Source: Janthinobacterium sp. UMAB-56
GTDB taxonomy: Bacteria > Pseudomonadota > Gammaproteobacteria > Burkholderiales > Burkholderiaceae_D
DNA length: 64,000 bases
Assembly (NCBI RefSeq): GCF_900095265.1
Contig: NZ_LT607658.1
Location: 173,524-237,523 of the forward strand
Direction of reading: 5' to 3'
Positions 27,615-62,939 of the stretch are shown in pieces. Each line of letters opens with the position of its first letter. The first letter of the stretch is position 1. Both the position numbers and the translations under genes were made by a program. A model generated the notes under the pieces. The model searched no databases. It saw only the letters and a program-made list of their open reading frames with translations, and was not told the DNA's origin.

Positions 27615-29789
27615 TTATTGAGGGGCTGCTTCGGTATCAGGCGTGGGCGTTGTGGTGCCGGCGGCCGGGGATTTGGGCCATGGCCATGGATCTGGTTTGG
27701 CGGTGGTTTTTGGCTTGCGTACGCGCGGTGCTGGCGTCTTGATTTCTGGTTCCGGCTGGTCGACCGCAGCTACTGCAGGCGCCTCGATCTCGGCTACTTC
27801 TACGCTTGAGGACAGGCCGATTTGGTCTGCCAGGTTGGCAGCGTCCTCGTCGTCGGACTCTTCCTGCGCCACGTGGGCCGCGCCTGGTGTGCTTGCTTCT
27901 CCGGCGCGCAGCCAGACTTGACCTGGTGCGTAATTCCAGCCAAGGGCTTTCGCGGCCCGATCGAGGGAATAGACCAAGAGCGGCCGCTCGGCGAGAATAA
28001 ATTTACTGAGGTCATTTAGGCGGTCTGGTGCGTTGGCGATGAGGTCACTCAACTGGTGCTCCTGCAGATCCTCAAACGCGATCGACGCCATTTCCAGCTG
28101 CAGGCGTACGGCATCAGGGTCTATGCCTTCATGCCTGGCCATGGCATGTATTGCGGCCTGCTGGTTTTCGAGGTCTTCGTTATCCCAGCCATTGGTAATC
28201 AGGCTGTCGCCTAGCAGCAGGTCGACCAGTAGCAACTGCAAATCGGACAGGCCAGCCTGATCGATATAGGCGTGAATGCTCTCGGTGCTGGAGGTGTCAA
28301 ACGTGTATACGCCGGCGAGAGCCTCGTCTGGCAGATCGCGGTCAATCAGCACCAGTTTGGTAAATTCGCGCAGCGAGGCCAGTGAGAAACCGTTGGCGCC
28401 GCGTGCGCGCAGGCGCTTGTAAAGCTCGATGCGGTACGCCTCTTCCTGTTCGGCTTTTTTCTCTTCCGCGCGTGCGATTTCCCGTTGCTTTTCGGCGGCC
28501 GCTTGCTTTTCCGGTGTATGTGCAGCGGCCTCCTTTTTTGCTTCTGCGGCGCGGAGTGCCGACATGCGCGCGTCATAGACTTCTTTTGTTTCGCACGCGC
28601 CGGCATCTTCCAAGAGTTTCTGGATGGTCGCCTTATCGTAAAAGGGGGTCAACAGGCCCTTCTCGTCCTTCACGTACCACGCTGGCTCGGGCAGCAGACC
28701 GCTCTCAAGGAATTTCTCTGTATTGCCTTCATTTTTTGTGCTGGGCGCGTTGCGTTCGAAGACCCACAACGGCGACGCCAGCGCTACAAACTGGCTGCTG
28801 GTTCTATATTCATTCTGGCGTCTTTTTGTCGCCCCATCCTCGCCTTCGTAGACAGGCACGCCGCCTTGGGATGCTGCTGCAATGGCTAATGCATCGTGCG
28901 CCTGGCGCTTTTCGGCGTAGCACGCCGGATCTGTGCAGACGTCTGCACTTTTGATGTCAGTGAATACGTCCGGCTGGTTACCTGTTTTCTTGGGGCACTT
29001 GGTACAGGCGCCGGCAAGAGGCAGTAAGGCGGCATCGCTGAGCTTAAACAGCGCGCGGGTCAGGTCGACCATATAGCGGGTCTGGATATGCTGTAACGCC
29101 GCGCGGTACGACATCGGCTCGCCAGTGCGCTGATCTGGCGCGCTGATCTCGGACAGCGCCTTGATCTGCAGGGCAGGGACAGGTACGCGTGCGATCAGCA
29201 GCGCTGTCGAGGCGGAAATCGCGTCATCGAGGAACTTCTCGCGCACCTCGGTCGTCAGTGCGCACAACTTCAGGCGGGCATAAATATAGGAGCGTGATAC
29301 TTCCAGTTTTACGACCAGCTGGTCGGCCGTGTATCCGGCCTGCAGCATGAGTTCCTGGAACCCTTCCGCCTCTTCCATCGGGTGCGGGTCTTCTCGCTGC
29401 AGGTTCTCCAGGATCTGTATTTCGCGCGCCTGGCTATCGGTCAGGTTGCGGGTAATGGTCGACACGACGTCCAGCGCGGCGATGCCGGCAGCGCGCCAGC
29501 GGCGTTCGCCAGCGACGATCTCGAACGGCTCGGGCGCTTCGGCGGTCGGCGTGACTGGTCGGATCAGGATCGGCTGGATGATGCCAACCTCTTTGATGTT
29601 CGCGGCCAGCTTCTGCAGTTTGACTTCGTCGAAGCGTTTGCGATTCGTGTAGCTGGGGCGGATATCTGCGCGGCGGGTGCTGCCGTACACAGGGCCGTCG
29701 ACCAGCTCGTCGACGACGATGGTTTTCGCTTTGCGTGCCGGCGCGGTTTTCAGGCCCCCGATGGTGGGGATTACGAGGTCGCTACTCAT
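27615..29789 (-). CDS. ParB/RepB/Spo0J-family protein without ParA
   Basis: A large (724 residues) ParB-like protein in the early leftward operon. The N-terminal CTPase/nuclease-like domain has GERRWRA (box II) and ENLQRED (box III), the motifs that bind CTP in ParB clamps. A helix-turn-helix region follows (LVVKLEVSRSYIYARLKLC). The middle has a zinc-like cluster CTKCPKK and VCTDPACY, then a long Ala/Lys/Glu-rich coil and a Pro-rich tail. No parA is nearby. A 16-bp palindrome found three times in the prophage, once inside this gene (28933-28948), is a possible cognate parS. The role may be segregation, replication or late-gene control. Confidence 0.8.
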   Translation of the reverse strand: MSSDLVIPTIGGLKTAPARKAKTIVVDELVDGPVYGSTRRADIRPSYTNRKRFDEVKLQKLAANIKEVGIIQPILIRPVTPTAEAPEPFEIVAGERRWRAAGIAALDVVSTITRNLTDSQAREIQILENLQREDPHPMEEAEGFQELMLQAGYTADQLVVKLEVSRSYIYARLKLCALTTEVREKFLDDAISASTALLIARVPVPALQIKALSEISAPDQRTGEPMSYRAALQHIQTRYMVDLTRALFKLSDAALLPLAGACTKCPKKTGNQPDVFTDIKSADVCTDPACYAEKRQAHDALAIAAASQGGVPVYEGEDGATKRRQNEYRTSSQFVALASPLWVFERNAPSTKNEGNTEKFLESGLLPEPAWYVKDEKGLLTPFYDKATIQKLLEDAGACETKEVYDARMSALRAAEAKKEAAAHTPEKQAAAEKQREIARAEEKKAEQEEAYRIELYKRLRARGANGFSLASLREFTKLVLIDRDLPDEALAGVYTFDTSSTESIHAYIDQAGLSDLQLLLVDLLLGDSLITNGWDNEDLENQQAAIHAMARHEGIDPDAVRLQLEMASIAFEDLQEHQLSDLIANAPDRLNDLSKFILAERPLLVYSLDRAAKALGWNYAPGQVWLRAGEASTPGAAHVAQEESDDEDAANLADQIGLSSSVEVAEIEAPAVAAVDQPEPEIKTPAPRVRKPKTTAKPDPWPWPKSPAAGTTTPTPDTEAAPQ
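28933..28948. repeat. palindrome copy 1 (parS-like), inside parB
   Basis: Perfect 16-bp palindrome GTGCAGACGTCTGCAC. The minus-strand flank continues AGATC, exactly as in copy 2. Same length and symmetry as chromosomal parS sites but a different sequence. Confidence 0.65.
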
Positions 29790-30040
29790 GGGTGGGCCTT
29801 GACGAATAATTTCCCTGATGGTCCGCAAAGGCCGGCAAAGTCGTTGTTGCTGCGGGCTTTAACGCAGACTATTGGCTGGTAGCCGTAAACAAGATCGATA
29901 AGCCGGACATCTGGCGACGTACACTGCGGAAAGCGTCGTGCTGGGGAGGTGGCGAAGTGCAAGCAATCCTTGCAAAACACCGGCTCTGCTGCTGGTGGCA
30001 TCGGTGGCCGTGCCAGTGGCATATCGGCTTTGAGTTCCAT
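29786..30040 (-). CDS. small Cys-rich phage protein
   Basis: An 84-residue protein. ATG 30040 has GGAGA six bases upstream. It has a Pro-rich N-terminus and then FCKDCLHF, QCTSP, VCVK and GLCG, five cysteines that may bind zinc. It overlaps the parB start by four bases (ATGA) and is probably translationally coupled to it. No known family. Confidence 0.65.
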   Translation of the reverse strand: MELKADMPLARPPMPPAAEPVFCKDCLHFATSPARRFPQCTSPDVRLIDLVYGYQPIVCVKARSNNDFAGLCGPSGKLFVKAHP

Positions 30041-30072
30041 ATAAATCTCCAGTGATGGGCATTCGCCCTTTG

Positions 30073-30276
30073 TTACTTCTTGATGAAATCGAATGGGGCG
30101 CTGTTGCCGATCGGGAGCAGTTCGTTTCCCTCGGCCAGCTGCGCGGCCAGGGCGTTTTTCGCCTGGCGTGGTGACATGGGTTTTCCGTCCGGGTGCGCGA
30201 ATCCGCGCAGTTCGTGCAGTGGCCTGGCCAGCACGCTGCGGACGTCGATCGCCAGGTGGACGAGCGGGGCGGTCAT
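30073..30276 (-). CDS. small phage protein
   Basis: A 67-residue soluble protein, MTAPLVHLAIDVRSVLARPL..., containing KPMSPRQAKNALAAQLAEGNELLPIG. Its start overlaps the preceding gene by four bases. It is part of the leftward operon; function unknown. Confidence 0.55.
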   Translation of the reverse strand: MTAPLVHLAIDVRSVLARPLHELRGFAHPDGKPMSPRQAKNALAAQLAEGNELLPIGNSAPFDFIKK

Positions 30277-31034: not shown

Positions 31035-31077
31035 AAGTATAGGTCAACTATACTTTTAATGTAAAGAAAAACTATAC
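31035..31077 (-). promoter_or_regulatory. left early promoter PL with two operators
   Basis: On the minus strand TTTACA (plus 31060-31065) and TATACT (plus 31036-31041) are 18 bp apart and point to the operon starting at 30993. Operator OL1 is GTATAG-N5-CTATAC at 31037-31053, flanked by extra AA/TT symmetry (31035-31055). OL2 is GTAAAG-N5-CTATAC at 31061-31077. The two centres are 24 bp apart, and both overlap the promoter. Confidence 0.75.
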
Positions 31078-31125: not shown

Positions 31126-31152
31126 TAAAAAAGGCTCGCGCTGGGCGAGCCT
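31126..31152 (-). terminator. terminator of the repressor gene
   Basis: On the minus strand AGGCTCGC and GCGAGCCT (plus 31145-31152 and 31132-31139) form an 8-bp stem followed by a T run (A on plus 31127-31132). It ends the cI transcript before PL. Confidence 0.8.
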
Positions 31153-31176: not shown

Positions 31177-31899
31177 TTAGCGTCTGCGGGTTTTCCTTCG
31201 TAGTTCCGCCAGAACGCCAATTATTGTGAGTGGCACTTCGTCGCTTCTCACTGTAGGGTAGTTTTCGTTAATTGGAACCAATTCAAATATGTCGTTACCT
31301 TGAGCGTTTGTGCCACGCAGTCGGTACTTTTTGAAGGTCGCTTCCTGCTTACCATTTTTGGCGGCAACGCAATCTCCAGGGCGCGGTTCCCATTCTGGCT
31401 CGATGATAACGATGTCCCCTGGTAAGTAATCGGGAGACATCGAATCACCTTCAATTTCTAGAGCAAATACCCACCGAGAGTAGCCCTCATCAACGTAAAT
31501 CGTGGCTGACCCGTCGCCTGGTGCGTATGGCGCAACAATTTCTTTTAACGCTCCAGCCTGAATGGATGATATGACTGGTATTGCCCGAGACCCAAGCTTT
31601 GCTGCCTTAGCGTTCTGGTCAAATGGGGCGGTGCTTACTAGCGATAGATGGGATGGCTCCGTCGACATGCCCTGGCGAATTTCATCAGGTAGCGACTGCG
31701 CGGTGATCTTGGCGATCGCTAGCAGTTGGCGCAAGTTGGGGCTGTGTTTACCTGTCTCCCAGTGAGAAATATTTGCCTTACTGTGCCCACGCTCGGACCC
31801 GAGCAGCAGCGCCATTTTTGCGCCTAGATCAGCTCCCGACATGCCTGCCGTGGCTCTTGCTGTCCGCACCCATTTAGCTATTACGTCTTTAATTTCCAT
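31177..31899 (-). CDS. CI-like phage repressor, S24 self-cleaving
   Basis: A 240-residue repressor. ATG 31899 gives MEIKDVIAKWVRTARATAGMSG. The N-terminal helix-turn-helix is ADLGAKMALLLGSERGHSKANISHWETG. The C-terminal LexA/S24 domain has cleavage site Ala115-Gly116 (SIQAGAL), catalytic Ser153 (EGDSMSPDYLPGD) and Lys190 (EATFKKY). It should keep lysogeny and be inactivated by RecA after DNA damage. It is divergent from the Cro-like gene across three operators, one of which covers its own promoter region, so autoregulation is likely. Confidence 0.9.
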   Translation of the reverse strand: MEIKDVIAKWVRTARATAGMSGADLGAKMALLLGSERGHSKANISHWETGKHSPNLRQLLAIAKITAQSLPDEIRQGMSTEPSHLSLVSTAPFDQNAKAAKLGSRAIPVISSIQAGALKEIVAPYAPGDGSATIYVDEGYSRWVFALEIEGDSMSPDYLPGDIVIIEPEWEPRPGDCVAAKNGKQEATFKKYRLRGTNAQGNDIFELVPINENYPTVRSDEVPLTIIGVLAELRRKTRRR

Positions 31900-31908
31900 T
31901 CCGCCATC

Positions 31909-31973
31909 GTATAGGTTCTCTTTACCAATAAGGTATAGAAGCGCTTGACGCAAATGTATAGAATACCTATACT
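31909..31973 (+). promoter_or_regulatory. right early promoter PR with three operators
   Basis: TTGACG (31945-31950) and TATACT (31968-31973) are 17 bp apart: a near-consensus promoter for the Cro-like gene. Three 17-bp sites of form GTATAG-N5-CTATAC are present. OR1 at 31956-31972 is perfect and overlaps the -10. OR2 at 31933-31949 (second arm CTTGAC) overlaps the -35. OR3 at 31909-31925 (second arm CTTTAC) lies next to the repressor start. Centres are 23-24 bp apart, as in lambda OR. Confidence 0.85.
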
Positions 31974-31993
31974 CAAGCGAATTCATCTACCGG

Positions 31994-32356
31994 ATGCAAA
32001 AAATGACACCAGAAAAAGCACTTGAAAACGCGATAGCGTTAGCCGGCTCTATGCAAGCGCTGGCTGATCACCTCGGGGTGACTAAAGGCGCTGTGAGCCA
32101 GTGGAAGCTTCCTGGTCGGCAGATCCCGGCAAAGCACTGCCGGTCAATTGAAAGCATGACTGGAGGTACATCGCGTTGTGTGGATCTGCGTCCAGACTTG
32201 TTCGCTTTGAGCCTGCCGGCTGCCCCCACTCATCGCGCTACTGATTTGATTCCCATACCGGGCCACGCGGGGCGCCAATTGCCTTCTCCATCAAACATTC
32301 TCGATACGGTGCCAGAGCGTGCGGTCGTCGGAATTGATGGTCCAAACGGTTCGTAG
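31994..32356 (+). CDS. Cro/YdaS-like DNA-binding protein
   Basis: A 120-residue protein with an N-terminal helix-turn-helix, ALAGSMQALADHLGVTKGAVSQW (about residues 15-37), typical of YdaS/Cro repressors, then a Pro-rich tail. It starts about 14 nt after the predicted PR start site; ATG 32003 is an alternative start. It should bind the same operators and favour lytic growth. Confidence 0.75.
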   Translation: MQKMTPEKALENAIALAGSMQALADHLGVTKGAVSQWKLPGRQIPAKHCRSIESMTGGTSRCVDLRPDLFALSLPAAPTHRATDLIPIPGHAGRQLPSPSNILDTVPERAVVGIDGPNGS

Positions 32357-32428
32357 GCACTTTTGTTTCATGCCGCAAGCGTAGCTAGATTGCTTGCGAA
32401 CAACAACCACCATGTAGAAGGAAATGTT

Positions 32429-32896
32429 GTGAAAATCAAAAAAGCGTACCTTGGCATGATCAAGGCTTTCCCTGGCGGATGGGATGCAATTTCAGCTGCG
32501 TTGGGCATGAGCCGCAATGGCCTGGAAAACCGCGTCTACGAACGCAAGGGCCAGGGGGTGACGGTCGACACGGCCCTGCAGCTGCAGGCGTTCTCTGGCA
32601 CTACGTTATTTGCCGAGGCGGTGGCCGCATCGAGCGGTGGGGCATTCGTCAAATTGCCGGCAGACCTATCGGACGGCAATGAAGTGCTGGCCAAGAAGTT
32701 TCGCGACATATACGTCCGCTTGGGGATCTTCGCCGCCCACTTCGAAGAGGCGACTGCAGACGAGGTGATTGATGCGCGTGAGCGCGCCTGCCTCGATGCC
32801 GATATGGATGGCTTGCAGCGGGGTCTGTCCGAGCTGATGGCGTTGACCATTCGCGTGTATTGCTTGCCTGACGGTGGTCAGGATGGTGCGGCATGA
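32429..32896 (+). CDS. YmfL-like phage regulatory protein
   Basis: A 155-residue protein. The GTG at 32429 has AAGGA six bases upstream and gives KIKKAYLGMIKAFPGGWDAISAALGMSRNGLENRVYERKGQGVTVDTALQL, the YmfL signature; an upstream ATG at 32363 has no ribosome site. It has a CII-like position, just after cro, and may act at early promoters. The C-terminal half is helical. It overlaps the next gene by four bases. Confidence 0.7.
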   Translation: MKIKKAYLGMIKAFPGGWDAISAALGMSRNGLENRVYERKGQGVTVDTALQLQAFSGTTLFAEAVAASSGGAFVKLPADLSDGNEVLAKKFRDIYVRLGIFAAHFEEATADEVIDARERACLDADMDGLQRGLSELMALTIRVYCLPDGGQDGAA

Positions 32897-33318
32897 GCGT
32901 ATACCGTGTACCACGCGCCGGCACGCGCCCCGACATCGCCGTGCGCAAACTCCTGCAGCTGGGAGGCCGTGCTGATCTAAACGACTGGATGCGTGCCATC
33001 GGCTGGAGCGGCACCATCACCTCGTTCGAGCGCGATATCGTCAATTCGTTGACTCGCTGCCACGTGGTGCGCATGGAGGCCGGCCAGTACACCGTCACGC
33101 AGCGCGGCCGGGACTATGCCGGCCCGGTCGTTGGCGCCGCGACGTCGACGGCAGGGCAGGTTGCGGGGCCGCGCCACGCGCCATCTAAGGCGTTATTGTC
33201 GGATCGCCACAGTGCGCGTGCAGGCCTGGTGCGCGAGGGCGCGCTCGATTACGCACAGATCCCGTCCCGCTACGGTAGTCAGCGCGTTGCGCACAAGGCG
33301 AAGGTGCGTACCGCGTGA
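32893..33318 (+). CDS. putative winged-helix phage early protein
   Basis: A 141-residue protein. The N-terminal part (IAVRKLLQLGGRADLNDWMRAIGWSG, then DIVNSLTRCHVVRMEAGQYTVTQRGRDY) looks like a winged helix; the tail is basic and low-complexity. It sits between the YmfL-like gene and the primase-helicase with overlaps on both sides. A role in replication initiation is possible but not shown. Confidence 0.6.
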   Translation: MSVYRVPRAGTRPDIAVRKLLQLGGRADLNDWMRAIGWSGTITSFERDIVNSLTRCHVVRMEAGQYTVTQRGRDYAGPVVGAATSTAGQVAGPRHAPSKALLSDRHSARAGLVREGALDYAQIPSRYGSQRVAHKAKVRTA

Positions 33319-35849
33319 CTCTCGACGATTTTGCCGCAGTCAACAGCGCGGCCATCCTTTCCATTGAATCGCTGCTGAATTCCTGGTTCCCGAACGGCGT
33401 GCGTGAAGGTATCGAGTTCTGTATTGGTTCTGCCTCCGGCGAAGCCGGCAAATCAATGCGTATCCGTCTCGAAGGCGATAAAGCCGGCGTATGGGCTGAT
33501 TTTTCCGACGACGGCGTAGCCGGCGCTGATCTCATTTCCCTCTATGCGCATATCCACAGTGTGAAGCAGGGCCGGGCGTGCGCCGACCTGGCCGCGCAGC
33601 TGGGTATCACGCTGACGCCATCCGATTTTTCCCCTCCTGGCGCAACGCGCCCTATCGTTTCGGCCAAGCCGAAAAACACCCCCAGTCGCGCGCCCGCGCA
33701 AGCGGACAAAGGGGTACAGGCAGTTTCCGAGGCAAAAATAAAGACGCCCTGGGCGCCAATTTTGCCCGTCCCGGCCGATGCAGGGCCTTATCCGAAGGCC
33801 CACGTGGTGCGCGGCAAGCCTGATATATCGTGGGAGTACCGCGACCAGGGTGGCCAGCTGCTGGGTGTGATCTATCGTTTCACCACCTCGGACGGTGGCA
33901 AGGAAGTGCTGCCGTGCGTGTTCGCGCAGCACCCGGTCTCGAACCACCGCGAATGGCGGTGGATGTCGTTTCCTGTTCCTCGCCCGCTGTACCTGCGCGG
34001 TGCGCTGCGGCCCGAATTGCCGGTATTGGTGCTGGAGGGCGAGAAGTGTACAGACCGCGCCCACGACATGTTGGCAGATGAGCTGGATGCCGTGTCCTGG
34101 GTCGGCGGCAGCAAGGCGGTCGACAAGGCCGACTGGACGCCGCTGGCAGGCCGCACGGTGATTCTGTGGGCCGATGCCGACGCCAAGCGCTACAAGGAAA
34201 AGCACAAGCGGGCCGGCGAGCTGATGCCGGAAGCGGACCAGCCCGGCATGGCGGCGATGATCAAGATCGGCGCCATTCTGCGCGGCCTGGGCTGCTCGGT
34301 GTTTTTTGTCGACATTCCCGCACCAGGTGAGGTGGCCGATGGCTGGGACGTGGCCGACCTGATCGATGGCGGCGCCGGCGTTGACGAGGTGATGTCCTGG
34401 GTGACGAGGCTGCGCGTGGACGAGATCGATTCAGTTGACCAGGCCGGGATCGTCGCGGCGCCGGCGGCGCCTGCAGATGACGTGCCTGGCTGGGTTGACG
34501 AGCAGATGGATTCACTGCCGGCAGACGGATCTACCCCTTTGCCAGCTGGCGCGGGCATGTCGCCAAAGCAGCTGCGGGCGGAATTGATCCAGACTGCTAA
34601 TGGCGGCGTAAAAGGCTGCCGCGAGAACGTCTACACCGTGATGCAGGGCGATCCGCGCTTGATTGGCTTGGTGGGCCTGGATCTGTTTTCCGGCCTGCAG
34701 GTGAAACGGCGCGCCACACCCTGGCGCAGTGAACCAGGCGAATGGACGGAGGGCGACGATTTCCACCTGGGCGTGTACCTGTCGCGCCACCATAGCCTGC
34801 TGCTGGCCAGCATAGGCGACATCGAGCGCGGTGTGGCACAGGCGGCGCGCGAGCATGCGTTCAACCCGGTGACGGACTACATGGATCGCTGCCGCGCCAT
34901 GTGGGACGGCAAACAGCGCGTAGCCGGTGCGTTCGGCCGGTACTGGGGCTGTGCAGATAAAGCCGAATACCTTGAGCTGGTGTCGACCATGTTTTTTGTT
35001 GGTGTTGTGGTGCGGGCCTATCGCCCAGGCGCCAAGCACGACTACGCGCCCGTATTCGAGGGCGGCCAGGGCGAGGGTAAGTCGACCGCGCTGAAGGTGC
35101 TGGGCGGCGACTGGTTTGCCGACACGCCTTTCCGTATGGGCGAGAAAGACGGGTACCTGTCGATCCAGGGCGTGCTGCTGTACGAGGTGGCCGAGCTGGA
35201 GCAGTTCAACAGGTCAGAGGTGACGGCCATCAAGGCGTTCATGTCGTCGACGGTGGACAGGTTCCGCGAGCCGTACGGCCGCCGCATGAAGAACATGCCG
35301 CGCCGCTGCGCATTTGCAGCGACGACCAACGAAGGCGAGTATTTCAAGGACTCGACGGGCAACCGACGTTTTTGGCCGGTGGCCACAGGGACTATCGATC
35401 TGGACGCGTTGATTGAGGACCGTGACCAGTTATTTGGCGAGGCCGTGGCGATGATGAATGCCGGCGTGCTGACGTATCCAACACGCGAACAGCAGACGCG
35501 CCTGGTATCGCCTGAACAGGAAAACCGCGAGATCCCCGACCCATGGCATGGCCATATCTACCGCTACCTGGAGGGGCTGGACGCCGATGGTAATGAGAAG
35601 GTCAATGGCAAGATCAACCGCGTCACGGTGCTGGACCTGTTGACGCGCGGCCTACACTTCGAGATATCGAAGCTTGGCCCGGCCAAGCTCGAAACGATGC
35701 GCATCGGCGCGATCATGCGCAAGCTGGGCTGGATCAAAGATCGAGAAACATCGGGCGCGCGCGAGCGGTTCTACGCGCGGCCAGCGCCGGCGCCACAGCC
35801 TGGCGCTGAACCAACACGGGAGGACGACGATGCGCCGCTTCCCTTCTAA
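33315..35849 (+). CDS. primase/VirE-type helicase fusion
   Basis: An 844-residue replication protein starting at GTG 33315 inside the previous gene's stop. The N-terminal third is primase-like, with a TOPRIM-type region LPVLVLEGEKCTDRAH (about residue 237) and VILWADADAK (about 283). The C-terminal third is a VirE/SF3 ATPase: Walker A EGGQGEGKSTAL (about 578-589), the acidic motif LLYEVAELEQF and the arginine motif STGNRRFWPV. It should prime and unwind phage DNA. The CCAACCT repeats directly downstream may be its origin. Confidence 0.85.
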   Translation: MTLDDFAAVNSAAILSIESLLNSWFPNGVREGIEFCIGSASGEAGKSMRIRLEGDKAGVWADFSDDGVAGADLISLYAHIHSVKQGRACADLAAQLGITLTPSDFSPPGATRPIVSAKPKNTPSRAPAQADKGVQAVSEAKIKTPWAPILPVPADAGPYPKAHVVRGKPDISWEYRDQGGQLLGVIYRFTTSDGGKEVLPCVFAQHPVSNHREWRWMSFPVPRPLYLRGALRPELPVLVLEGEKCTDRAHDMLADELDAVSWVGGSKAVDKADWTPLAGRTVILWADADAKRYKEKHKRAGELMPEADQPGMAAMIKIGAILRGLGCSVFFVDIPAPGEVADGWDVADLIDGGAGVDEVMSWVTRLRVDEIDSVDQAGIVAAPAAPADDVPGWVDEQMDSLPADGSTPLPAGAGMSPKQLRAELIQTANGGVKGCRENVYTVMQGDPRLIGLVGLDLFSGLQVKRRATPWRSEPGEWTEGDDFHLGVYLSRHHSLLLASIGDIERGVAQAAREHAFNPVTDYMDRCRAMWDGKQRVAGAFGRYWGCADKAEYLELVSTMFFVGVVVRAYRPGAKHDYAPVFEGGQGEGKSTALKVLGGDWFADTPFRMGEKDGYLSIQGVLLYEVAELEQFNRSEVTAIKAFMSSTVDRFREPYGRRMKNMPRRCAFAATTNEGEYFKDSTGNRRFWPVATGTIDLDALIEDRDQLFGEAVAMMNAGVLTYPTREQQTRLVSPEQENREIPDPWHGHIYRYLEGLDADGNEKVNGKINRVTVLDLLTRGLHFEISKLGPAKLETMRIGAIMRKLGWIKDRETSGARERFYARPAPAPQPGAEPTREDDDAPLPF

Positions 35850-36524: not shown

Positions 36525-36573
36525 CAGCAAGCATGGGATGAACAAACAGTGGACAACGAAAAGGGGTAGGACA

Positions 36574-36909
36574 ATGGGGACGATGGAAGTGGAAGCAGTG
36601 CACCAGGTAGCGCCACTGGACGTTTGCCTGAATATTTGGGCACGTTGGAACGCCCTAGGTGATTATCAGATCACCAGCGGGGAGGGCAATCAGCAGGATA
36701 CCAAGGAGTTCATGCAGGCGGGCGAGGCCATCGAGGTCATGATCAACTCGCTGAGCCGGATGCAATGGTGGGCGGTCCGCAAATCCAAGGGGATTTGCAC
36801 CGCTTGGATATTCAAGGATGTGCATTTTGCTGATGCCTTGGCGGAGGCTGAGGCAATCTTGGAGCCTAAATTGCGCAAACATGTTGCCACTAGGCGACAT
36901 TTCGATTAG
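36574..36909 (+). CDS. small protein in the late-antiterminator position
   Basis: A 111-residue protein. ATG 36574 follows GGGGTAGG; an ATG at 36538 is possible but has a poor ribosome site. Conserved-looking aromatic and charged positions (CLNIWARWNALGDYQ, RMQWWAVRKSKGICTAW) and a basic C-terminus (KLRKHVATRRHFD) fit a nucleic-acid-binding protein. It is the last early gene, followed by a promoter-like sequence and two terminators before the late operon, the place of Q in lambdoid phages. The Q role is an inference from position. Confidence 0.5.
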   Translation: MGTMEVEAVHQVAPLDVCLNIWARWNALGDYQITSGEGNQQDTKEFMQAGEAIEVMINSLSRMQWWAVRKSKGICTAWIFKDVHFADALAEAEAILEPKLRKHVATRRHFD

Positions 36910-36949: not shown

Positions 36950-36975
36950 AGCCCGCCTTTAAAAGCGGGCTTTTT
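36950..36975 (+). terminator. first terminator before the late operon
   Basis: AGCCCGC (36950-36956) pairs with GCGGGCT (36965-36971), and a T tract follows. Confidence 0.8.
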
Positions 36976-37064
36976 GCGTTTTTGCGTAAAGATTTCTCAA
37001 CAGCGAAAGAGGTGATCTGTCTCGATCCGCTGCATAGCGGGGGATACATACGTTCCTTGTGCTT

Positions 37065-37086
37065 GCCCACTTCGGTGGGCTTTTTT
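37065..37086 (+). terminator. second terminator before the late operon
   Basis: GCCCAC (37065-37070), tetraloop TTCG, GTGGGC (37075-37080), then six T. A very strong Rho-independent terminator placed upstream of the late genes. Confidence 0.85.
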
Positions 37087-37158: not shown

Positions 37159-37174
37159 GTGCAGACGTCTGCAC
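37159..37174. repeat. palindrome copy 2 (parS-like), head of the late operon
   Basis: GTGCAGACGTCTGCAC, 16-bp perfect palindrome, between the terminator at 37065-37086 and the ribosome site of the first late gene. A five-base 3' flank (AGATC) is shared with copy 1. Confidence 0.65.
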
Positions 37175-37193: not shown

Positions 37194-37871
37194 ATGGCGT
37201 TTGATATCTCGGTGCGCACCAACTTGGCGGACTTCGAGCGGGGCCTGAATGATCTCGCCCGGCGTCAGCTGCCGTATGCGACTGCACTGGCATTGACGTC
37301 GCTGGCCAAGATGGTGACGGTGGATGAGGTCAAGAACCTGTCGGCCAAACTGAAGAACCCGTCGCCCTTCACGCTGCGCTCGGTCAAATCCGTGGCGGCG
37401 CGCAAAGACAACCTGACGGCCAGGGTGTACGTGATGGACAAGACGGCCGCCTATCTTGAGCCGTACGAGCGCGGCGGTGTGCATAAGCTGGCTGGCAAGG
37501 CGCTGCTCAATCCCAAGGACATCACGCTCAACCAGTACGGGCAGTTGCGCAAGGGCGCGCTGGCCGCACTGAAGGGGCGCAGCGATATCTTCATCGGGCC
37601 GGTCAAGACGAAGAAGGGGATCGTCAACGGTGTGTGGCAACGCACGGCGGCAACGGCATCGATCACGAACAAGAAGACGGGCAAGACGCGCATCAGTTCG
37701 CGCGGCGTCAACACGTCCGGTGCGTTGAAGCTGTTGATACGCTTCGGTGATGCGCTGGCAGTCAGGACGCGGCTGGGGTACCAGGCGCGAGCAACGGCGC
37801 TGGTCAATGCCAACTTCAATGCCGAGATGGACAAAGGCATGGTCAAAGCGATGGGGTCGGCCCGGCCGTGA
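37194..37871 (+). CDS. phage structural-type hypothetical protein
   Basis: A 225-residue protein. ATG 37194 has GGAG five bases upstream and gives MAFDISVRTNLADFERGLNDLARRQLPYATALALTSLAK. It is basic, with no membrane segment. Proteins of this type are found near terminase genes in lambda-like prophages of Burkholderiales and may take part in head or tail completion; this is not established. First gene of the late operon. Confidence 0.6.
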   Translation: MAFDISVRTNLADFERGLNDLARRQLPYATALALTSLAKMVTVDEVKNLSAKLKNPSPFTLRSVKSVAARKDNLTARVYVMDKTAAYLEPYERGGVHKLAGKALLNPKDITLNQYGQLRKGALAALKGRSDIFIGPVKTKKGIVNGVWQRTAATASITNKKTGKTRISSRGVNTSGALKLLIRFGDALAVRTRLGYQARATALVNANFNAEMDKGMVKAMGSARP

Positions 37872-38016: not shown

Positions 38017-38535
38017 ATGGGAAAACTGGTCGCCAAGCGCGAGCTGTCGGAAATCATCGGCGTATCGGAGCGCACATTCAGCGAGTGGCAAAAAGAGCCC
38101 GGCTTCCCTTTTGAGATCAACGGCGGGCGCGGCTCGGTCAACAGTTACGACACGGCGAAAGTCATCCAGTGGATGGTCGCCCGCGACATCGCGCGCCGCG
38201 TCGGTGAGAAACCGCGTGACCGGGTCGACCGGTTGAAGGCTGACTTGTTGGAGGTCGACCTGGCCGAGCGGCTGGGCCAGCTGGCGCCGGCCGCGCTGTT
38301 CGAGCGCGCTTGGTCGGATCATATCGTCGCGACAAAAACAGAATTGCTCTCGCTGCCGCTGCGCCTGGTCGGCGAGATTCACGCATTGCATGGCATCACG
38401 GTCGATACCGATCTGATCCTGGTGCAGATCGAGGCCTCGCTGGCCAAGCTGGAGAGTTTTGATGTCGACGCATTCGATTCTGATGAACCCGACCCTGAAG
38501 GCGATGATGCGCCAGACGGTGGCTACGACGATTAA
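38017..38535 (+). CDS. terminase small subunit, Nu1-like
   Basis: DNA-recognition subunit of the packaging motor, 172 residues. The N-terminal winged-helix motif KRELSEIIGVSERTFSEWQKEPGFPF is the Nu1 signature. A middle helical region (RVDRLKADLLEVDLAERLGQLAPAALFERAW) is typical of the family, and the C-terminus is acidic. It overlaps the large subunit gene by 74 bases. Confidence 0.85.
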   Translation: MGKLVAKRELSEIIGVSERTFSEWQKEPGFPFEINGGRGSVNSYDTAKVIQWMVARDIARRVGEKPRDRVDRLKADLLEVDLAERLGQLAPAALFERAWSDHIVATKTELLSLPLRLVGEIHALHGITVDTDLILVQIEASLAKLESFDVDAFDSDEPDPEGDDAPDGGYDD

Positions 38536-40606
38536 GGAAGTCCAGAAGCGCTGGGCGCCCGCCCCGAAAATCAGTACCCGCGCCTGGGCGCGGAAATACC
38601 GCTACCTGTCCGAGCTGGAGTCGCAGCTGCCGGGCAAGTACAACCTGGACGTGACGCCCTATCTGGCGTGGGAGAACGGGCCGCTCGATGCGATCGACGA
38701 TCCTACCGTGCGCAAAGTGGTCGGGCAAAAATCGGCGCAGATCGCATGGACGTCGGGAGTCATCGGTAACGCCCTGGCTAAGTGGGTCGACAGCGACCCG
38801 TCGCCGATCCTGGGACTGTTCCCGAAGGAGATGGCGGCTAAAGAATATATGGCCGAGAAGTTCGAGCCGATGGTCGACGCGACGCCCCGCTTGCGCGGCA
38901 AGATAGACCTGCGCAGCAGGAAGGCGCAGCAGCGCCAGTTGTTCAAGCGGTTCCCTGGCGGGTTCCTGAAACTGGTCGGCTCGAATTCGCCTTCTTCGGT
39001 GAAGTCGACGCCGACGCCGCGCGTGTTCGTGGAAGAGCCGGACGATTGCAACCTGAACCTGAGAGGGCAGGGGGACTCGATCAAGCTGGCCGAGGAGCGG
39101 GTCAAGACCTATGCGCGGCCGAAGCTGATCATTGGCGGCACGCCGACGATTGAAGGCGTTTCGGCTGTCGTCGCTGAAATGGAGAATTCGGACAAGCGCC
39201 GGGCGATGATCCCTTGCGGCGATTGCGGCGAGGAGCACCCGCTCGACTTCGATAATTTGCGCTGTCTGGACGACCCGCTGCAGAGCCACCCTGTCTTCGG
39301 CATCAAGCTGCCGGAGACGGCGTATTACGCATGCCCGGCTTGTGGCTGCGCCTGGACCGATGCACAGAAAAATCGGTATGTACGCAAGGGCCGCTGGGTT
39401 GCTACCGCACCGTTTCGTGGCGTAGCCGGCTTCTACTTCAATGAGTTGATGAGCCCGTTCCCAGGCTCGCGCATGGCGTTGTTGATGGAAAAATGGCTGA
39501 CCGCGCTGCATGCGTTCAGCCTTGGCGATGCCGGCCCGCTGATTGCCTTTGTCAATAGCAGCAAAGGCCTGCCATACACCTACAAGGGTGACATGCCGAC
39601 GATCGGGGCACTGCAGGAACGCGAGCTGGATTACGAGGGCAACACCGTGCCGATCGGCGGCTTGATCCTGGTCGCTGGCGTCGATATCCAGCACGACCGG
39701 ATTGAAGTGGTGTTGCGGGCATTCGGGCGTGGCGAAGAAAGCTGGCTGGTGCAGTACATCCGCATATTCGGCAATCCTGCTGTCTATGAAGATCCTGTGT
39801 GGGCCGACTTGAATACGATCCTGTATCACAAGTACCGGTCGGTGCGCGGCTACAAAATTGGCCTGTCCGCTGTCAGCCTGGATACGTCGGACGGCACCAC
39901 GTCCGACGCGACGTACAAGTGGGTGCGGAACAACCAGCGTAAGGGCATTCCGTTCGTCATGGCGATCAAGGGATCCAGTTTGAAGGATTCCGAGATTTTC
40001 GCGCGGCCGGTACCGACCAAGGAAACGAACAAGCGCAACACCAAGGCGGCGAAATATGGCTTGCAAGTGTTCATCGTCGGCACGTCGCGTGCCAAGGACT
40101 TGCTGATCGGCGAAAGCGGGCGCGTCTCGCTGGACGGTAGCGGGCCTGGCCGGTTCCATACCTACAGAAACACCAGCCCGGAGTATTACAGTCAGCTGCT
40201 GGAGTCTGAGGTCAAGGCGCCGATCCGGACCAGCAACGGCCATATCGTCAAGGCCTGGCAAAAGAAAGTCGGCCGCCGCAATGAGGTGCTCGATTGCGAG
40301 GTCTACGCGCTGCATGCCAGCCGCGCCGCGAAAGTGCATTTGCGCATGCCGGCACAATGGAGCTCCCTGGAGGCGCAATTGAGCCAGGCGCCATTGTTCG
40401 ATGACGATGACCTGCCGGATGTGCCGGTATTGCCGAGCGAAGGCGCGGCGCCGGTCAACAGCGCTCCTGGCGCTGCGGTAGAGGAGGTCTTGCCCACGGA
40501 GTCGTCGCATCTCGTGGAAGCCGTTGCTGCTTCTGAACCTGCTGCAGTGCGAGTTATATCCGTCGCCGCAGTACCGGCATTGAAAAAACGTAAACGCTTC
40601 GCGTAG
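38462..40606 (+). CDS. terminase large subunit, GpA family
   Basis: Packaging ATPase/nuclease of 714 residues. ATG 38462 has GGAGAG six bases upstream, inside the small-subunit gene. The N-terminal ATPase contains the modified P loop VGQKSAQIAWTSG typical of lambda GpA, and the Walker-B-like VFVEEPDDC. A Cys4 cluster (CGDCGEEHPL and CPACGC) follows. The nuclease part has AGVDIQHDRIEVVL with metal-binding Asp. The C-terminal 80 residues are variable, Ala/Pro-rich. GpA terminases cut at cos sites. Confidence 0.92.
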   Translation: MSTHSILMNPTLKAMMRQTVATTIKEVQKRWAPAPKISTRAWARKYRYLSELESQLPGKYNLDVTPYLAWENGPLDAIDDPTVRKVVGQKSAQIAWTSGVIGNALAKWVDSDPSPILGLFPKEMAAKEYMAEKFEPMVDATPRLRGKIDLRSRKAQQRQLFKRFPGGFLKLVGSNSPSSVKSTPTPRVFVEEPDDCNLNLRGQGDSIKLAEERVKTYARPKLIIGGTPTIEGVSAVVAEMENSDKRRAMIPCGDCGEEHPLDFDNLRCLDDPLQSHPVFGIKLPETAYYACPACGCAWTDAQKNRYVRKGRWVATAPFRGVAGFYFNELMSPFPGSRMALLMEKWLTALHAFSLGDAGPLIAFVNSSKGLPYTYKGDMPTIGALQERELDYEGNTVPIGGLILVAGVDIQHDRIEVVLRAFGRGEESWLVQYIRIFGNPAVYEDPVWADLNTILYHKYRSVRGYKIGLSAVSLDTSDGTTSDATYKWVRNNQRKGIPFVMAIKGSSLKDSEIFARPVPTKETNKRNTKAAKYGLQVFIVGTSRAKDLLIGESGRVSLDGSGPGRFHTYRNTSPEYYSQLLESEVKAPIRTSNGHIVKAWQKKVGRRNEVLDCEVYALHASRAAKVHLRMPAQWSSLEAQLSQAPLFDDDDLPDVPVLPSEGAAPVNSAPGAAVEEVLPTESSHLVEAVAASEPAAVRVISVAAVPALKKRKRFA

Positions 40607-57648: not shown

Positions 57649-57650
57649 AT

Positions 57651-60325: not shown

Positions 60326-60390
60326 CTTTGTTGGCCTAGCTGCGGCTGCCGATCATCGTCAAAGTCGCATAGGCTTCCACGCCTCACTAC

Positions 60391-60412
60391 AAACCCGCTT
60401 CGGCGGGTTTTT
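60391..60412 (+). terminator. terminator after the tailspike gene
   Basis: AAACCCGC (60391-60398), tetraloop TTCG, GCGGGTTT (60403-60410) and T residues. Confidence 0.8.
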
Positions 60413-60436
60413 CATTTCCATCACCTGAGAGGCCCT

Positions 60437-60769: not shown

Positions 60770-60771
60770 CC

Positions 60772-61011: not shown

Positions 61012-61523
61012 CGCTCGACCAGTTGATCAAGATCATGCCCAATGCCCGCGCCAAAGCGGGTATTTTTTTGCTCGCGCTCAACGCCGCCATGGCCGAGTTC
61101 GGCATCAACACGCCGGCGCGCCAGGCGTCGTTCCTGGCCCAGCTTGCGCATGAGTCCGGCCAACTGTTGTATGTGCGCGAGCTGGCCAGCGGCGCGGCGT
61201 ACGAGGGGCGCCGCGACCTGGGCAACACGCAGCCCGGCGATGGCGTGCGCTTCCGTGGGCGCGGTCTGATCCAGGTGACCGGCCGCACGAACTACGCCGC
61301 ATGCGGCAAGGCCCTGGGCCTGGATCTGCTGGCCAAGCCGGAACTTCTCGAACAAACCGTCAACGCCTGCCGCTCGGCTGGCTGGTTCTGGCAGTCCCGT
61401 GGCCTGAACGCGTTGGCCGATGCCGGTGACCAAGTGGCGGTGACGAAGCGCATCAACGGGGGGGCGAATGGCCTGGCCGAGCGGCAGGCGTATTTCAAGG
61501 TGGCGCAGCGGGTGCTGGCATGA
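61008..61523 (+). CDS. endolysin, GH19 chitinase-like
   Basis: A 171-residue peptidoglycan hydrolase: FLAQLAHESGQLLYVRELASG (catalytic Glu in HESG), AYEGRRDLGNTQPGDGVRFRGRGLIQVTGRTNY, and RSAGWFWQSRGLNALAD. This is the GH19-type phage lysozyme pattern. No signal peptide, so it needs the holin. ATG 61008 overlaps the previous stop. Confidence 0.9.
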   Translation: MTLDQLIKIMPNARAKAGIFLLALNAAMAEFGINTPARQASFLAQLAHESGQLLYVRELASGAAYEGRRDLGNTQPGDGVRFRGRGLIQVTGRTNYAACGKALGLDLLAKPELLEQTVNACRSAGWFWQSRGLNALADAGDQVAVTKRINGGANGLAERQAYFKVAQRVLA

Positions 61524-61999
61524 GCGCGACCGTGTGGCGGGGAGTTGCCTTTGTACTGGCCACGCTGCTGGTAGCGGCCGGCGTCGGGATTGTTTGCGCC
61601 CACAGTGTTGGCGACCAGGAGGGATTCCAGCGGGCCACGTCCGAGCGCACCGCGCGCGATGCGGTCGCCATCGTCGCTCGCGTGCGCGATAACGCCGCGC
61701 TGTCGATCACGCAGGAAAACATCAACCAGATTATTACCAGGACTAAAAATGAAGAAACTGCCCCTGTTGTTCAGCGCATTTATGTTGACCGCGTGCGCGT
61801 CGGCGCCGGAACCTGTGGACCTGCCGGCGCGGCCAATGCCGACGGCGCCAGCGGCAGCGATGAAGCCGATCCATCCCGCCGGCTGGTACGCGACGACGTC
61901 GAGCGAGATACGCGAGCGCTGACCGAGGCGGTGGAGCAGGATCTGGCCACCGGCCGTGCATGTCAGGCATTTGTGCGGGAAAACGGCATGGCGCCGTAG
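61520..61999 (+). CDS. Rz-like inner-membrane spanin
   Basis: A 159-residue protein with an N-terminal transmembrane anchor (GVAFVLATLLVAAGVGIV), then a helical periplasmic part. It carries the Rz1 gene in another frame. Together they fuse inner and outer membranes at lysis. Confidence 0.75.
   Translation: MSATVWRGVAFVLATLLVAAGVGIVCAHSVGDQEGFQRATSERTARDAVAIVARVRDNAALSITQENINQIITRTKNEETAPVVQRIYVDRVRVGAGTCGPAGAANADGASGSDEADPSRRLVRDDVERDTRALTEAVEQDLATGRACQAFVRENGMAP
61749..61922 (+). CDS. Rz1-like outer-membrane lipoprotein, nested in Rz
   Basis: A 57-residue protein wholly inside the Rz gene in another frame. ATG 61749 follows AGGA. Signal MKKLPLLFSAFMLTAC has lipobox LTAC; the mature chain is Pro-rich (PEPVDLPARPMPTAPAAAMKP), as in Rz1 o-spanins. 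Confidence 0.8.
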   Translation: MKKLPLLFSAFMLTACASAPEPVDLPARPMPTAPAAAMKPIHPAGWYATTSSEIRER

Positions 62000-62004
62000 G
62001 GAGT

Positions 62005-62040
62005 GGCTGATTGTTGCTGCGCTAACAGCAGCAATCAGCC
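62005..62040 (+). terminator. long hairpin after the lysis cassette
   Basis: GGCTGATTGTTGCTG (62005-62019) pairs with CAGCAGCAATCAGCC (62026-62040), 15 bp with one G-T pair and a 6-base loop. No T tract follows. Confidence 0.45.
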
Positions 62041-62112
62041 GGTGCGCCGGGTGAGAAGGCTTGGATTACCTCGCGGGAGGGAATCCGACTCTATCACTAG
62101 GAGGTACACATT

Positions 62113-62901
62113 TTGGCTTTACCCATTATCCCCTGGATCGGCGGCAAACGACGCCTTGCCGATCGTATCATCCCCCAATTCCCGCCGCATACCTGCTACG
62201 TGGAGGTGTTCGCCGGCGGCGCCGCGCTGTACTTCATGCGGCCGCCGGCAGACGTCGAAGTGCTGAACGACGTCAACGGCGAGCTGATGAATCTTTACCG
62301 GGTCGTCCAGTGCCACTTGGAGGAGTTCGTGAAACAGTTTAAGTGGGCTTTGTCGAGCCGTGACATGTTTAAGTGGCTGCAGGAAACGCCGACGCAAACC
62401 CTGACCGACATTCGGCGCGCGGCCAGATTTTTCTACCTGCAGCAACAAGCCTTTGGCGGAAAGGTCGACGGGCAGACTTGGGGCACGGCCACTACGGCGC
62501 CACCGATCAACTTGCTGCGCATCGAGGAGAACTTGTCGGCAGCGCATCTGCGCCTGTCCAATGCCTATATCGAGAACCTGGACTGGTACAAGTGCATGGA
62601 GCGTTACGACCGGCCGCATACTCTGTTCTACCTGGACCCGCCGTATTGGGAGACTGCTGGCTATGGCGTTGAGTTCGAATTCGAGCAGTACGAGAAAATG
62701 GCCGAGTTGATGGGGCGATTGAAGGGCAAGGCCATTTTGAGCCTGAACGATCACCCTGATATTCGGCGTGTTTTTGAGCGCTTCCAGATGGATACGACCG
62801 GCATCCAGTACAACGTGGGCGGCGGCGGCAGAGCTGTCGAGCGCAGCGAGTTGATCATTTACAGTTGGGATAAGGCTGCGGAACCAGCAGGACTGTTCTA
62901 A
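62113..62901 (+). CDS. DNA adenine methylase, D12 (Dam) class
   Basis: A 262-residue N6-adenine methyltransferase. A TTG start at 62113 follows a perfect AGGAGG (62099-62104). SAM-binding motif FAGGAALYF (as YVEVFAGGAALYFMRPP) and catalytic DPPY (FYLDPPYWE) are present, with INLLRIEENLSAAHLRLSNA between. No restriction enzyme is adjacent, so it probably protects or marks phage DNA. The target site cannot be read from sequence. Confidence 0.88.
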   Translation: MALPIIPWIGGKRRLADRIIPQFPPHTCYVEVFAGGAALYFMRPPADVEVLNDVNGELMNLYRVVQCHLEEFVKQFKWALSSRDMFKWLQETPTQTLTDIRRAARFFYLQQQAFGGKVDGQTWGTATTAPPINLLRIEENLSAAHLRLSNAYIENLDWYKCMERYDRPHTLFYLDPPYWETAGYGVEFEFEQYEKMAELMGRLKGKAILSLNDHPDIRRVFERFQMDTTGIQYNVGGGGRAVERSELIIYSWDKAAEPAGLF

Positions 62902-62923
62902 CTTTTTGTCATCTTAGCGACCA

Positions 62924-62939
62924 GTGCAGACGTCTGCAC
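62924..62939. repeat. palindrome copy 3 (parS-like), after dam
   Basis: GTGCAGACGTCTGCAC again, here extended by three matching bases on each side (CCA before, TGG after). 22 bases past the methylase stop. Confidence 0.65.

What the first reader, a model, noticed from the sequence alone, without database searches (positions are those of the whole stretch)
27615..62939. Orphan ParB and three identical 16-bp palindromes: a candidate prophage centromere or clamp-loading system
GTGCAGACGTCTGCAC occurs at 28933-28948 (inside parB), 37159-37174 (head of the late operon) and 62924-62939 (just after dam). Any given 16-mer is expected far less than once in 64 kb, so three copies confined to the prophage are not chance. 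Copies 1 and 2 also share five flanking bases, and copy 3 extends the symmetry. Known parS sites are 16-bp palindromes, and the prophage encodes a ParB with the CTP-binding GERRWRA and ENLQRED motifs but no ParA in the window. Placement at the borders of the late operon suggests that a ParB-CTP clamp may regulate late transcription or organise DNA for packaging, rather than only partition it.
Basis: partly seen in the sequence, partly recalled or inferred. Interest (0 to 1): 0.87.

Follow-up and report, generated by a model that had tools for sequence, protein, structure and literature searches.

The report
Phage ParB clamp with scattered sites
A large group of bacterial viruses carries a ParB protein, a relative of the ring-shaped proteins that help segregate chromosomes, together with several copies of one 16-letter DNA mirror sequence that is probably its landing site, and the gene seems to be switched on during virus growth rather than used to keep a dormant virus in the cell.

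Summary
Confirmed: GTGCAGACGTCTGCAC occurs exactly three times in the 6.1 Mb genome, all in one 42.7 kb prophage. All 33 loci with a P0001 relative hold it within three mismatches; 31 records hold 111 copies within two mismatches, against 2 for the reversed palindrome. Conversely, 49 of 57 palindrome contigs of at least 30 kb encode a ParB_N protein, against 4 of 39 control contigs. Inside parB, Ser is AGT in 16 of 16 genes (background 8%), and the Val codon follows each phage group's site type. So it is very probably a parS-like loading site of a phage ParB. Partition is not supported: no ParA in 33 records, and in three of four phages tested the parB operon shares a putative CI operator beyond chance, implying lytic expression. 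Where a late-head copy was picked, it precedes the first late start by 9-33 nt in 24 of 26 loci (41% at random), but other copies are scattered. Best reading: a lytic ParB-CTP clamp that gates late transcription and/or organises phage DNA. Binding, CTP use and role are untested.

The parts
22507..22557 (.). attL, 51-bp direct repeat of attR (65156-65206, outside the window); attR overlaps the 3' end of a tRNA-His gene
   Evidence: repeat; tRNA-His at L163 8686-8761
24160..25455 (-). tyrosine integrase
   Evidence: PHROG integrase 4.7e-16
27615..29828 (-). orphan ParB (likely start ATG at 29789); ParB_N 59-144, HTH_ParB 146-229, CxxC...CxxxxC motif 275-303, long helical region, disordered tail
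   Evidence: Pfam PF02195 4.8e-21 and PF17762 6.4e-11; fold matches to ParB/Noc/KorB structures
28933..28948 (.). palindrome copy 1, inside parB
   Evidence: synonymous constraint on its codons
31036..31065 (-). promoter-like PL of the parB operon (TTTACA-18-TATACT)
   Evidence: consensus match only
31037..31053 (.). putative CI operator GTATAG-N5-CTATAC overlapping PL
   Evidence: beyond chance
31061..31077 (.). second putative CI operator at PL
31132..31152 (-). intrinsic-terminator-like hairpin after cI, separating cI from the parB operon
31177..31986 (-). CI-like S24 repressor
   Evidence: PHROG 2e-26, Peptidase_S24 3e-16
31909..31925 (.). putative CI operator between cI and cro
31956..31972 (.). 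putative CI operator between cI and cro
31994..32356 (+). Cro/YdaS-like regulator
   Evidence: PF15943 6.2e-19
32363..32896 (+). CII-like activator
   Evidence: PHROG 2.8e-22
33315..35849 (+). VapE-type primase-helicase
   Evidence: PF05272 7.4e-68
36538..36909 (+). last gene before the late region, in the place of a late regulator; unassigned
   Evidence: no PHROG or NCBIfam hit; position only
36950..36971 (+). terminator-like hairpin
37061..37080 (+). terminator-like hairpin with T run upstream of copy 2
37159..37174 (.). palindrome copy 2, between terminator and Shine-Dalgarno of the first late gene
37194..37871 (+). first late gene
   Evidence: phrog_1924 8.7e-44
38017..40606 (+). terminase small and large subunits
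62113..62901 (+). DNA methyltransferase, probably a DNA adenine methylase (dam)
62924..62939 (.). palindrome copy 3, near the right end of the prophage
   Evidence: conserved with dam in the Janthinobacterium SUN073 prophage

Best explanation
The palindrome GTGCAGACGTCTGCAC (sister form GTGCACACGTGTGCAC) is the parS-like loading site of a widespread family of phage-encoded orphan ParB proteins. During lytic growth (CI inactivated, or early infection) parB is made from the early leftward operon. ParB dimers bind the sites through their HTH, close as CTP clamps and slide onto neighbouring phage DNA. From several sites per genome, commonly one in parB and one between a terminator and the first late gene, the clamps coat the phage genome. 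The most likely use is control of when the late operon is read (a clamp sitting or sliding at the late head, as KorB does at plasmid promoters), with organisation of phage DNA as a second or alternative use. It is not a partition system for the lysogen. SHOWN by computation: site and ParB co-occurrence, selection on the site as DNA, no ParA of the PF13614 kind, ParB/CTPase fold, conserved late-head position. INFERRED: direct binding, CTP clamp cycle, lytic expression, effect on transcription.
For: Co-occurrence both ways: against controls; Fisher p 4e-14 for 49/57 against 4/39 (related phages counted as independent). 90 sites in 564 kb of relatives against mean 6.5, maximum 23, for up to 30 shuffled palindromes. 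DNA-level selection in parB: S294 AGT 16/16 against 8% background, the strongest of 398 columns; A295 GCA 22/24 against 22%, third. The Val codon in the same motif is GTC in 51 of 60 G-type genes and GTG in 15 of 17 C-type genes, following each group's site consensus. Where the motif codons are degenerate or lost, a site at <=1 mismatch sits in the 3' tail of parB in another frame (L014, L023, L025, L035). Behaves as two DNA half-sites: 76 of 90 sites keep one perfect 8-bp half, and only 17 of 74 changed stem pairs could still pair as RNA. Late-head copy within 33 nt of a start in 24 of 26 loci picked against 41% of random positions; with ATG alone 22 of 26 against 19%. Fold: ParB, Noc and KorB structures; box residues G82, G107, R110, R145 listed as invariant in the 66-row alignment. 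Shared cI/cro and parB-operon inverted repeats are equalled in only 1 (window), 2 (VarioGold) and 3 (Comamonas phage) of 150 random stretches of the same genome.
Against: No binding or CTP data. Late-operon placement is not exclusive: VarioGold, Aval and the Comamonas phage have sites in mid-late and early genes, which fits genome-wide loading better than a single late operator; seven further loci (L014, L015, L018, L021, L023, L026, L036) show no such late-head copy within 3 mismatches in the stretch held. 8 of 57 long palindrome contigs show no ParB; one (G132) is cut just beyond cI, the others are unexplained. G018, G031 and G041 hold a single copy without a phage-type ParB (G031's is a remnant). 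The CI operators are inverted repeats, not tested: in Aval the shared repeat is no better than chance (37 of 150 random stretches as good), in the Comamonas phage one of two gaps tested had none, and the window's own operator was not found in 8 close relatives, which probably have other immunities.
Confidence: 0.6

Rival explanations
1. ParB clamps loaded at the dispersed sites condense, protect or sort replicating phage DNA (against nucleases or defence, or for packaging); effects on transcription are incidental.
For: Sites are spread round complete phages (VarioGold 6 copies, largest gap 9.8 kb; Comamonas phage 6, 13.0 kb; Aval 5, 17.9 kb) and many lie inside genes; parB is inferred to be a lytic gene.
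Against: The late-head copy is held at 9-33 nt from the start of differing first late genes (24 of 26 loci picked), more than a structural role needs; this prophage has only three copies with a 25.8 kb gap.
Confidence: 0.3
2. A classical partition centromere: ParB and sites segregate the prophage or phage DNA with a host ParA.
For: ParB fold and 16-bp palindromic sites, one in parB; the Comamonas relative is deposited as a circular plasmid record; a chromosomal ParA exists in the host.
Against: Integrated at tRNA-His with an integrase; no PF13614 ParA in 33 relative records nor on this contig, though other partition NTPases were not searched; ParA-binding motif pattern in 1 of 33 relatives and 2 of the further ORFs; putative CI control would keep it off in the lysogen.
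Confidence: 0.06
3. VirB-like anti-silencing: ParB spreads from the sites and removes a host xenogeneic silencer from phage promoters.
For: VirB is an orphan ParB-like CTP clamp acting from virS sites that can lie more than 1 kb away (PMC10770331, abstract and passages).
Against: The window is 59% GC, no obvious AT-rich silencer target (not searched for).
Confidence: 0.1
4. The palindrome acts as an RNA hairpin or terminator element, unrelated to ParB.
For: The copy in parB is called terminator-like on the plus strand; the late-head copy would be transcribed just before the Shine-Dalgarno.
Against: Stem pairing is not maintained (17 of 74 changed pairs), the loop positions are as conserved as the stem, and ParB co-occurrence is strong.
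Confidence: 0.03
5. The in-gene copies only reflect the conserved protein motif SADVCT and codon usage, and the remaining copies are few.
For: The motif CxxC...ADVCTDPxC is conserved.
Against: Synonymous codons are constrained far beyond usage and follow the site type; late-head copies are conserved in position while flanks and genes differ.
Confidence: 0.03

Closest known systems
Orphan ParB-CTPase proteins of prophages (Kaljevic et al. 2025, PMC12704722; abstract, outline and passages seen)
   Same: Same fold and class: ParB-CTPase domain, HTH, no ParA, on mobile elements.
   Different: In the passages seen that survey deals with nucleotide binding and domain fusions; the word 'palindrom' does not occur in its main text. 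Here a site, its distribution and inferred expression timing are given.
KorB of plasmid RK2 (PMC11790492, abstract and passages seen)
   Same: ParB-type CTP clamp with a 16 bp operator OB, working over distance; structures 8qa8/8qa9 match the model.
   Different: KorB works with KorA at promoters; no KorA analogue was looked for here; only 19-21% identity; role in the phage unproven.
VirB-virS (PMC10770331, abstract and passages seen)
   Same: Orphan ParB-like CTP clamp that regulates genes from palindromic sites.
   Different: Activator against H-NS on a virulence plasmid; different context.
Noc-NBS
   Same: Orphan ParB relative with 16 bp sites (PMC8429893, search listing with start of abstract); fold match.
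   Different: NCBIfam Noc model scores 125.9 bits against a cut-off of 315; the site differs from NBS (recalled).
PRTRC-system ParB (TIGR03734)
   Same: Resemblance over residues 56-311, one of the two best NCBIfam matches.
   Different: Below the model's cut-off (125 against 278.6 bits); PRTRC cassette genes not searched for.
Stoperators of Cluster A mycobacteriophages (PMC6550527, passages seen)
   Same: Many copies of one binding site dispersed over a temperate phage genome.
   Different: 20-30 asymmetric sites bound by the immunity repressor; here 2-7 near-palindromic sites in the records of 35 kb or more, distinct from the putative CI operators, and the binding protein is probably made in the lytic phase.

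Membership tests
ParB-CTPase/HTH family (PF02195 + PF17762) | ParB_N domain followed by ParB HTH | tested here: met
   4.8e-21 and 6.4e-11, both above cut-off; TIGR00180 108 bits over cut-off 58
ParB-CTPase/HTH family (PF02195 + PF17762) | CTP-binding boxes (GERRxRA, ENxxR) | tested here: met
   invariant or near-invariant in the 66-row alignment
ParB-CTPase/HTH family (PF02195 + PF17762) | CTP binding, hydrolysis and clamp closure | not testable with these tools
   needs protein; nucleotide specificity is not reliably predicted from sequence (PMC12704722, section heading in the outline)
ParABS partition system | ParA ATPase encoded with ParB | tested here: not met
   PF13614: 0 of 33 records, many of them fragments; none on the prophage contig
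ParABS partition system | ParA-binding motif LGRGL type in the ParB N-terminus | tested here: not met
   pattern in 1 of 33 relatives anywhere in the protein; not in the P0001 sequence as printed
ParABS partition system | parS-like palindrome near or in parB | tested here: met
   (by sequence; binding untested)
Noc | Noc family model | tested here: not met
   TIGR04285 125.9 bits against 315
KorB-type long-range repressor | clamp-locking partner (KorA) bound near target promoters | not tested
   no candidate partner searched for
PRTRC ParB | score above TIGR03734 cut-off | tested here: not met
   125 against 278.6 bits
Stoperator-type repressor sites | sites bound by the immunity repressor | tested here: inconclusive
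   putative CI operators have a different sequence, but binding is untested

The most novel reading that the evidence does not exclude
A phage-encoded ParB sliding clamp, made early in the lytic cycle, loads at dispersed sites and times the switch to late transcription from a site between the late terminator and the first late gene: a CTP-clamp counterpart of KorB silencing, or of the T4 gp45 clamp in late transcription, shared by a large group of temperate phages.
Probability: 0.33. Interest if true: 0.88.

Novelty: new variant of a known kind. Interest (0 to 1): 0.72.

Why it matters
Orphan ParB proteins of prophages are common, but their DNA targets and function are unknown to me and not given in the survey passages seen (PMC12704722). 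This gives one large group of them a defined 16-bp site, a position map and a likely time of expression, including in an isolated mitomycin-induced phage (Variovorax phage VarioGold, PMC9658991; listing and passages seen). The question 'what does a ParB do without ParA in a virus' becomes directly testable by gel shift, CTPase assay, ChIP-seq and a gene deletion. It may also supply new orthogonal ParB/parS pairs for DNA labelling.

Tried and rejected
Partition with a phage ParA: rejected. RNA hairpin/terminator: rejected by the loss of pairing in variants. Pure protein-motif constraint: rejected. CI operators being the palindrome: rejected, they are a different inverted repeat.

A TerL-based two-by-two control failed: one search returned 6 loci, four of them in contigs already in hand. 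The single genome-contig scan gave only 2 relatives. Of 24 plasmid records with a P0001 match, three were opened: the Comamonas record is a phage with sites; Acidisarcina (41% identity) had no site in 24.9 kb; Myxococcus (33%) had one match at 2 mismatches in 17 kb. Among three control contigs with a ParB over cut-off, the one whose HTH carries AYIYASLKL (G221) had the exact palindrome at two different places in the loci held; the two with other helices had none in the loci held. G-type and C-type ParBs differ near the G201-equivalent (residues 206 and 208), but 26 of the positions 100-231 differ as strongly (score above 0.7), so this is confounded by ancestry. G031's single copy lies in a remnant of the late-head region beside an att core, and G033's third copy is the right end of the SUN073 prophage. 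G018's copy has no homology to this prophage in 40 kb; G041 was not followed beyond its 3 kb locus.

Rows dropped or chosen: one search used 29 of 34 parB sequences (frames of 500 codons or fewer, and the duplicate L032, removed). One search looked at 26 of 34 loci, the late-head site picked by me from the lists; L032 duplicates L005, and seven loci had none. Searches tested 100 of the 120 loci; the other 20 were second stretches of the same contigs or known P0001 relatives. Control contigs: 23 picked for length from the 80 listed, 20 unlisted ones of the same draw, and 7 of 30 kb or more; one of them (G221) proved to carry the palindrome. One search was given 37 loci, one per contig, of the 65; two of 66 rows (L268, L304) look like wrong reading frames and were left in. 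The G-type Val count includes genes drawn because of the palindrome; the unselected subset (GTC 22 of 26) gives the same answer. P-values count related phages as independent.


Full report
OBSERVATION. The 16-mer GTGCAGACGTCTGCAC is at 28933, 37159 and 62924, all exact, with no other match at up to three mismatches in the window. The whole genome (6.1 Mb, 82 contigs) holds just these three, and none of the reversed palindrome. They lie in one prophage bounded by a 51-bp repeat at 22507-22557 and 65156-65206; the right copy overlaps a tRNA-His 3' end.

ANATOMY. Leftward from the repressor: cI (31177-31986), a terminator-like hairpin (31152-31132), a promoter-like element (31065-31036), small genes, parB (27615-29828), more genes, int (24160-25455). 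Rightward: cro-like, cII-like, vapE, an unassigned gene at 36538-36909, two terminator-like hairpins (36950, 37061), copy 2 (37159), the first late gene (37194), terminase, head and tail genes, lysis, dam (62113-62901) and copy 3.

THE PARB. Pfam finds ParB_N and HTH_ParB. The AlphaFold2 model (mean pLDDT 84, pTM 0.60) matches ParB, Noc and KorB structures. In the 66-row alignment, G82, G107, R110 and R145 of the nucleotide boxes are listed as invariant, and C275, C278, C298 and C303 as nearly so.

FAMILY-WIDE CONSERVATION. P0001 relatives were found in 31 viral contigs and 2 genomes, down to about 45% identity; L005 and L032 are the same prophage. All 33 loci hold the palindrome within 3 mismatches. 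In 31 records (L004 and L032 not given; one record is a 4.5 Mb genome) there are 111 copies within 2 mismatches, against 2 for the reversed pattern. In 34 loci (564 kb; 32 of the 33 loci plus the phages Aval and VarioGold) there are 90 sites within 3 mismatches, against a mean of 6.5 and a maximum of 23 for up to 30 shuffled palindromes of the same composition.

CONVERSE TEST. Of 100 palindrome contigs not already known as relatives, 57 encode a ParB_N protein (28 of 50; 29 of 50). Among contigs of at least 30 kb it is 49 of 57 (24 of 27 and 25 of 30). Control contigs drawn by other patterns gave 4 of 50, or 4 of 39 at 30 kb or more (one of the four is below the family cut-off, and one, G221, itself carries the palindrome). 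The Fisher p for 49/57 against 4/39 is 4e-14 (relatedness not corrected). The sister palindrome's contigs gave 27 of 37, or 21 of 28 at 30 kb or more. The eight long misses remain ParB-less with an alignment search. One of them, G132, ends about 2 kb beyond cI, where parB would be expected. The rest are unexplained.

SELECTION ON THE DNA. The copy in parB covers codons for SADVCT of a Cys motif, so protein constraint had to be excluded. Over 29 genes and 398 columns, the column with the strongest codon bias is S294 (AGT 16/16, background 8%); second is G11 near the gene start; third is A295 (GCA 22/24, background 22%). Phages drawn by the sister form GTGCACACGTGTGCAC keep the same residues but write Val as GTG (15 of 17), where the GTGCAGACGTCTGCAC group writes GTC (51 of 60), which keeps one half-site in step with the group's own form (p 2e-9, or 5e-7 with the palindrome-unselected subset). 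General usage differs in the same direction but less (GTG 54% against 32%). In L014, L023, L025 and L035 the motif copy is weak or absent and a site with at most one mismatch sits in the 3' tail of parB in another frame.

NATURE OF THE SITE. 76 of 90 sites keep one perfect 8-bp half. Half-position 6 varies most (34 one-sided and 5 two-sided changes). Only 17 of 74 changed outer pairs could still pair as RNA (G-T allowed), and the central ACGT is as conserved as the arms. This is the pattern of a dimeric DNA site, not an RNA stem. The centre ACGT is shared with canonical parS (recalled). The recognition helix of the family, consensus SRSYIYGRLKL, differs from chromosomal ParB at contact positions (alignments; consensus; specificity residues from PMC7383237, passages seen; the numbering equation is recalled).

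LATE-HEAD COPY. In 24 of the 26 loci where such a copy was picked it lies 9-33 nt before a start codon that opens a frame of at least 60 codons; L007 and L010 have 85 and 113 nt (start codons assigned mechanically). Random positions on the same strand reach this in 41% of cases; with ATG alone it is 22 of 26 against 19%. Seven further distinct loci have no such copy in the stretch held. By eye the first late genes are of at least four unrelated kinds. Terminators with a T run directly precede the site in L009, L013, L022, L029, L033 and L034 by eye; in this window a weaker hairpin precedes it, with a T-run terminator about 80 nt further up.

OTHER COPIES. VarioGold (39.4 kb) has sites at 5756 (gap after the capsid gene), 15561, 21002, 29452 (parB), 31899 and 37753. 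Aval has 5488 (parB), 7662, 13369, 20625 (gap after the capsid gene) and 38568 (scored against both palindrome forms, <=2 mismatches). The Comamonas circular phage has 681, 13713, 20781, 29274, 31347 (parB) and 35200 (same scoring). So several sites per genome are usual, and in these three phages most are not at operon borders.

TIMING. In this window the inverted repeat GTATAG-N5-CTATAC (or one or two bases off) occurs twice between cI and cro and twice at the parB operon's promoter. VarioGold and the Comamonas phage each show their own, different inverted repeat at both places (in the Comamonas phage at the second of two gaps tested). A control with 150 random stretches of the same genome gave an equal or better shared repeat in 1 (window), 2 (VarioGold) and 3 (Comamonas) cases; for Aval it was 37, so Aval's is not beyond chance. 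By the lambda model this means CI represses the parB operon, so ParB should be a lytic protein. This is inference from operators. The window's operator was not found in 8 close relatives, whose immunity regions were not examined further.

MECHANISM. Shown: pairing of ParB and site by co-occurrence, DNA-level selection, fold, position. Inferred: binding, CTP clamp, sliding, function. A ParB that is off in the lysogen, has no ParA and loads at several places is unlikely to be a centromere. KorB is the best working model: a ParB-type CTP clamp loaded at a 16 bp operator that represses promoters up to 1.5 kb away with KorA (PMC11790492, abstract and passages). The same paper mentions the T4 gp45 clamp activating late genes (passage). 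An earlier idea that phage ParB-like proteins direct DNA modification during packaging is cited in PMC6536676 (passages), and PMC7556043 cites the suggestion that Serratia phage Eta uses its ParB with host factors to segregate a plasmid prophage (passages). I favour late-transcription gating at about 0.4 and DNA organisation at about 0.3.

NOVELTY. No paper in the library holds the palindrome, its 14-bp core or the sister forms (open-licence PMC only). The VarioGold paper names the gene only as a ParB-type protein in the passages seen, and 'palindrom' does not occur in its main text. The survey of orphan ParBs has no occurrence of 'palindrom' in its main text. Searches for phage ParB papers were. 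This is a new variant of the ParB clamp kind, not a new kind.

Noticed in passing
window 22507-22557; L163 8680-8730 (window 65156-65206): 51-bp attachment repeat: the prophage is 42.7 kb and ends 1.2 kb beyond the window, in the 3' end of a tRNA-His gene.
   Followed up: yes
L473 14564-15682 (genome G031): A same-genus genome has an att core followed by about 430 bp of the late-head region (84% identical, with the palindrome) and no other match to this prophage in 40 kb: a remnant or another element at the same att sequence.
   Followed up: partly
window 26843-27592 (-): Gene between parB and int that matches primase/helicase-type PHROGs and weakly DUF5906 although a full VapE gene lies at 33315-35849.
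   Followed up: no
P0001 residues 275-303: Nearly invariant CxxC...CxxxxC motif, possibly a zinc ribbon, overlapping the codons that carry the palindrome.
   Followed up: partly
L144 3869-3888 and L330 984-1003: The 'control' 16-mer GCATGCAGTCGACTGC turned up overlapping on both strands, as a 20-bp palindrome, in two contigs that both carry this ParB; possibly another shared operator.
   Followed up: no
window 63614-63991 (+): Receiver-domain (CheY-like, by eye) gene near the right end of the prophage, matching only PHROGs of unknown function.
   Followed up: no
L012-L036, mostly 0.2-1.1 kb upstream of the matched parB start (for example L013 9493): In the more distant subgroup the gene before parB carries GTGCACACGTCTGCAC in codons for SAHVCT, a motif like that in ParB itself.
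   Followed up: partly
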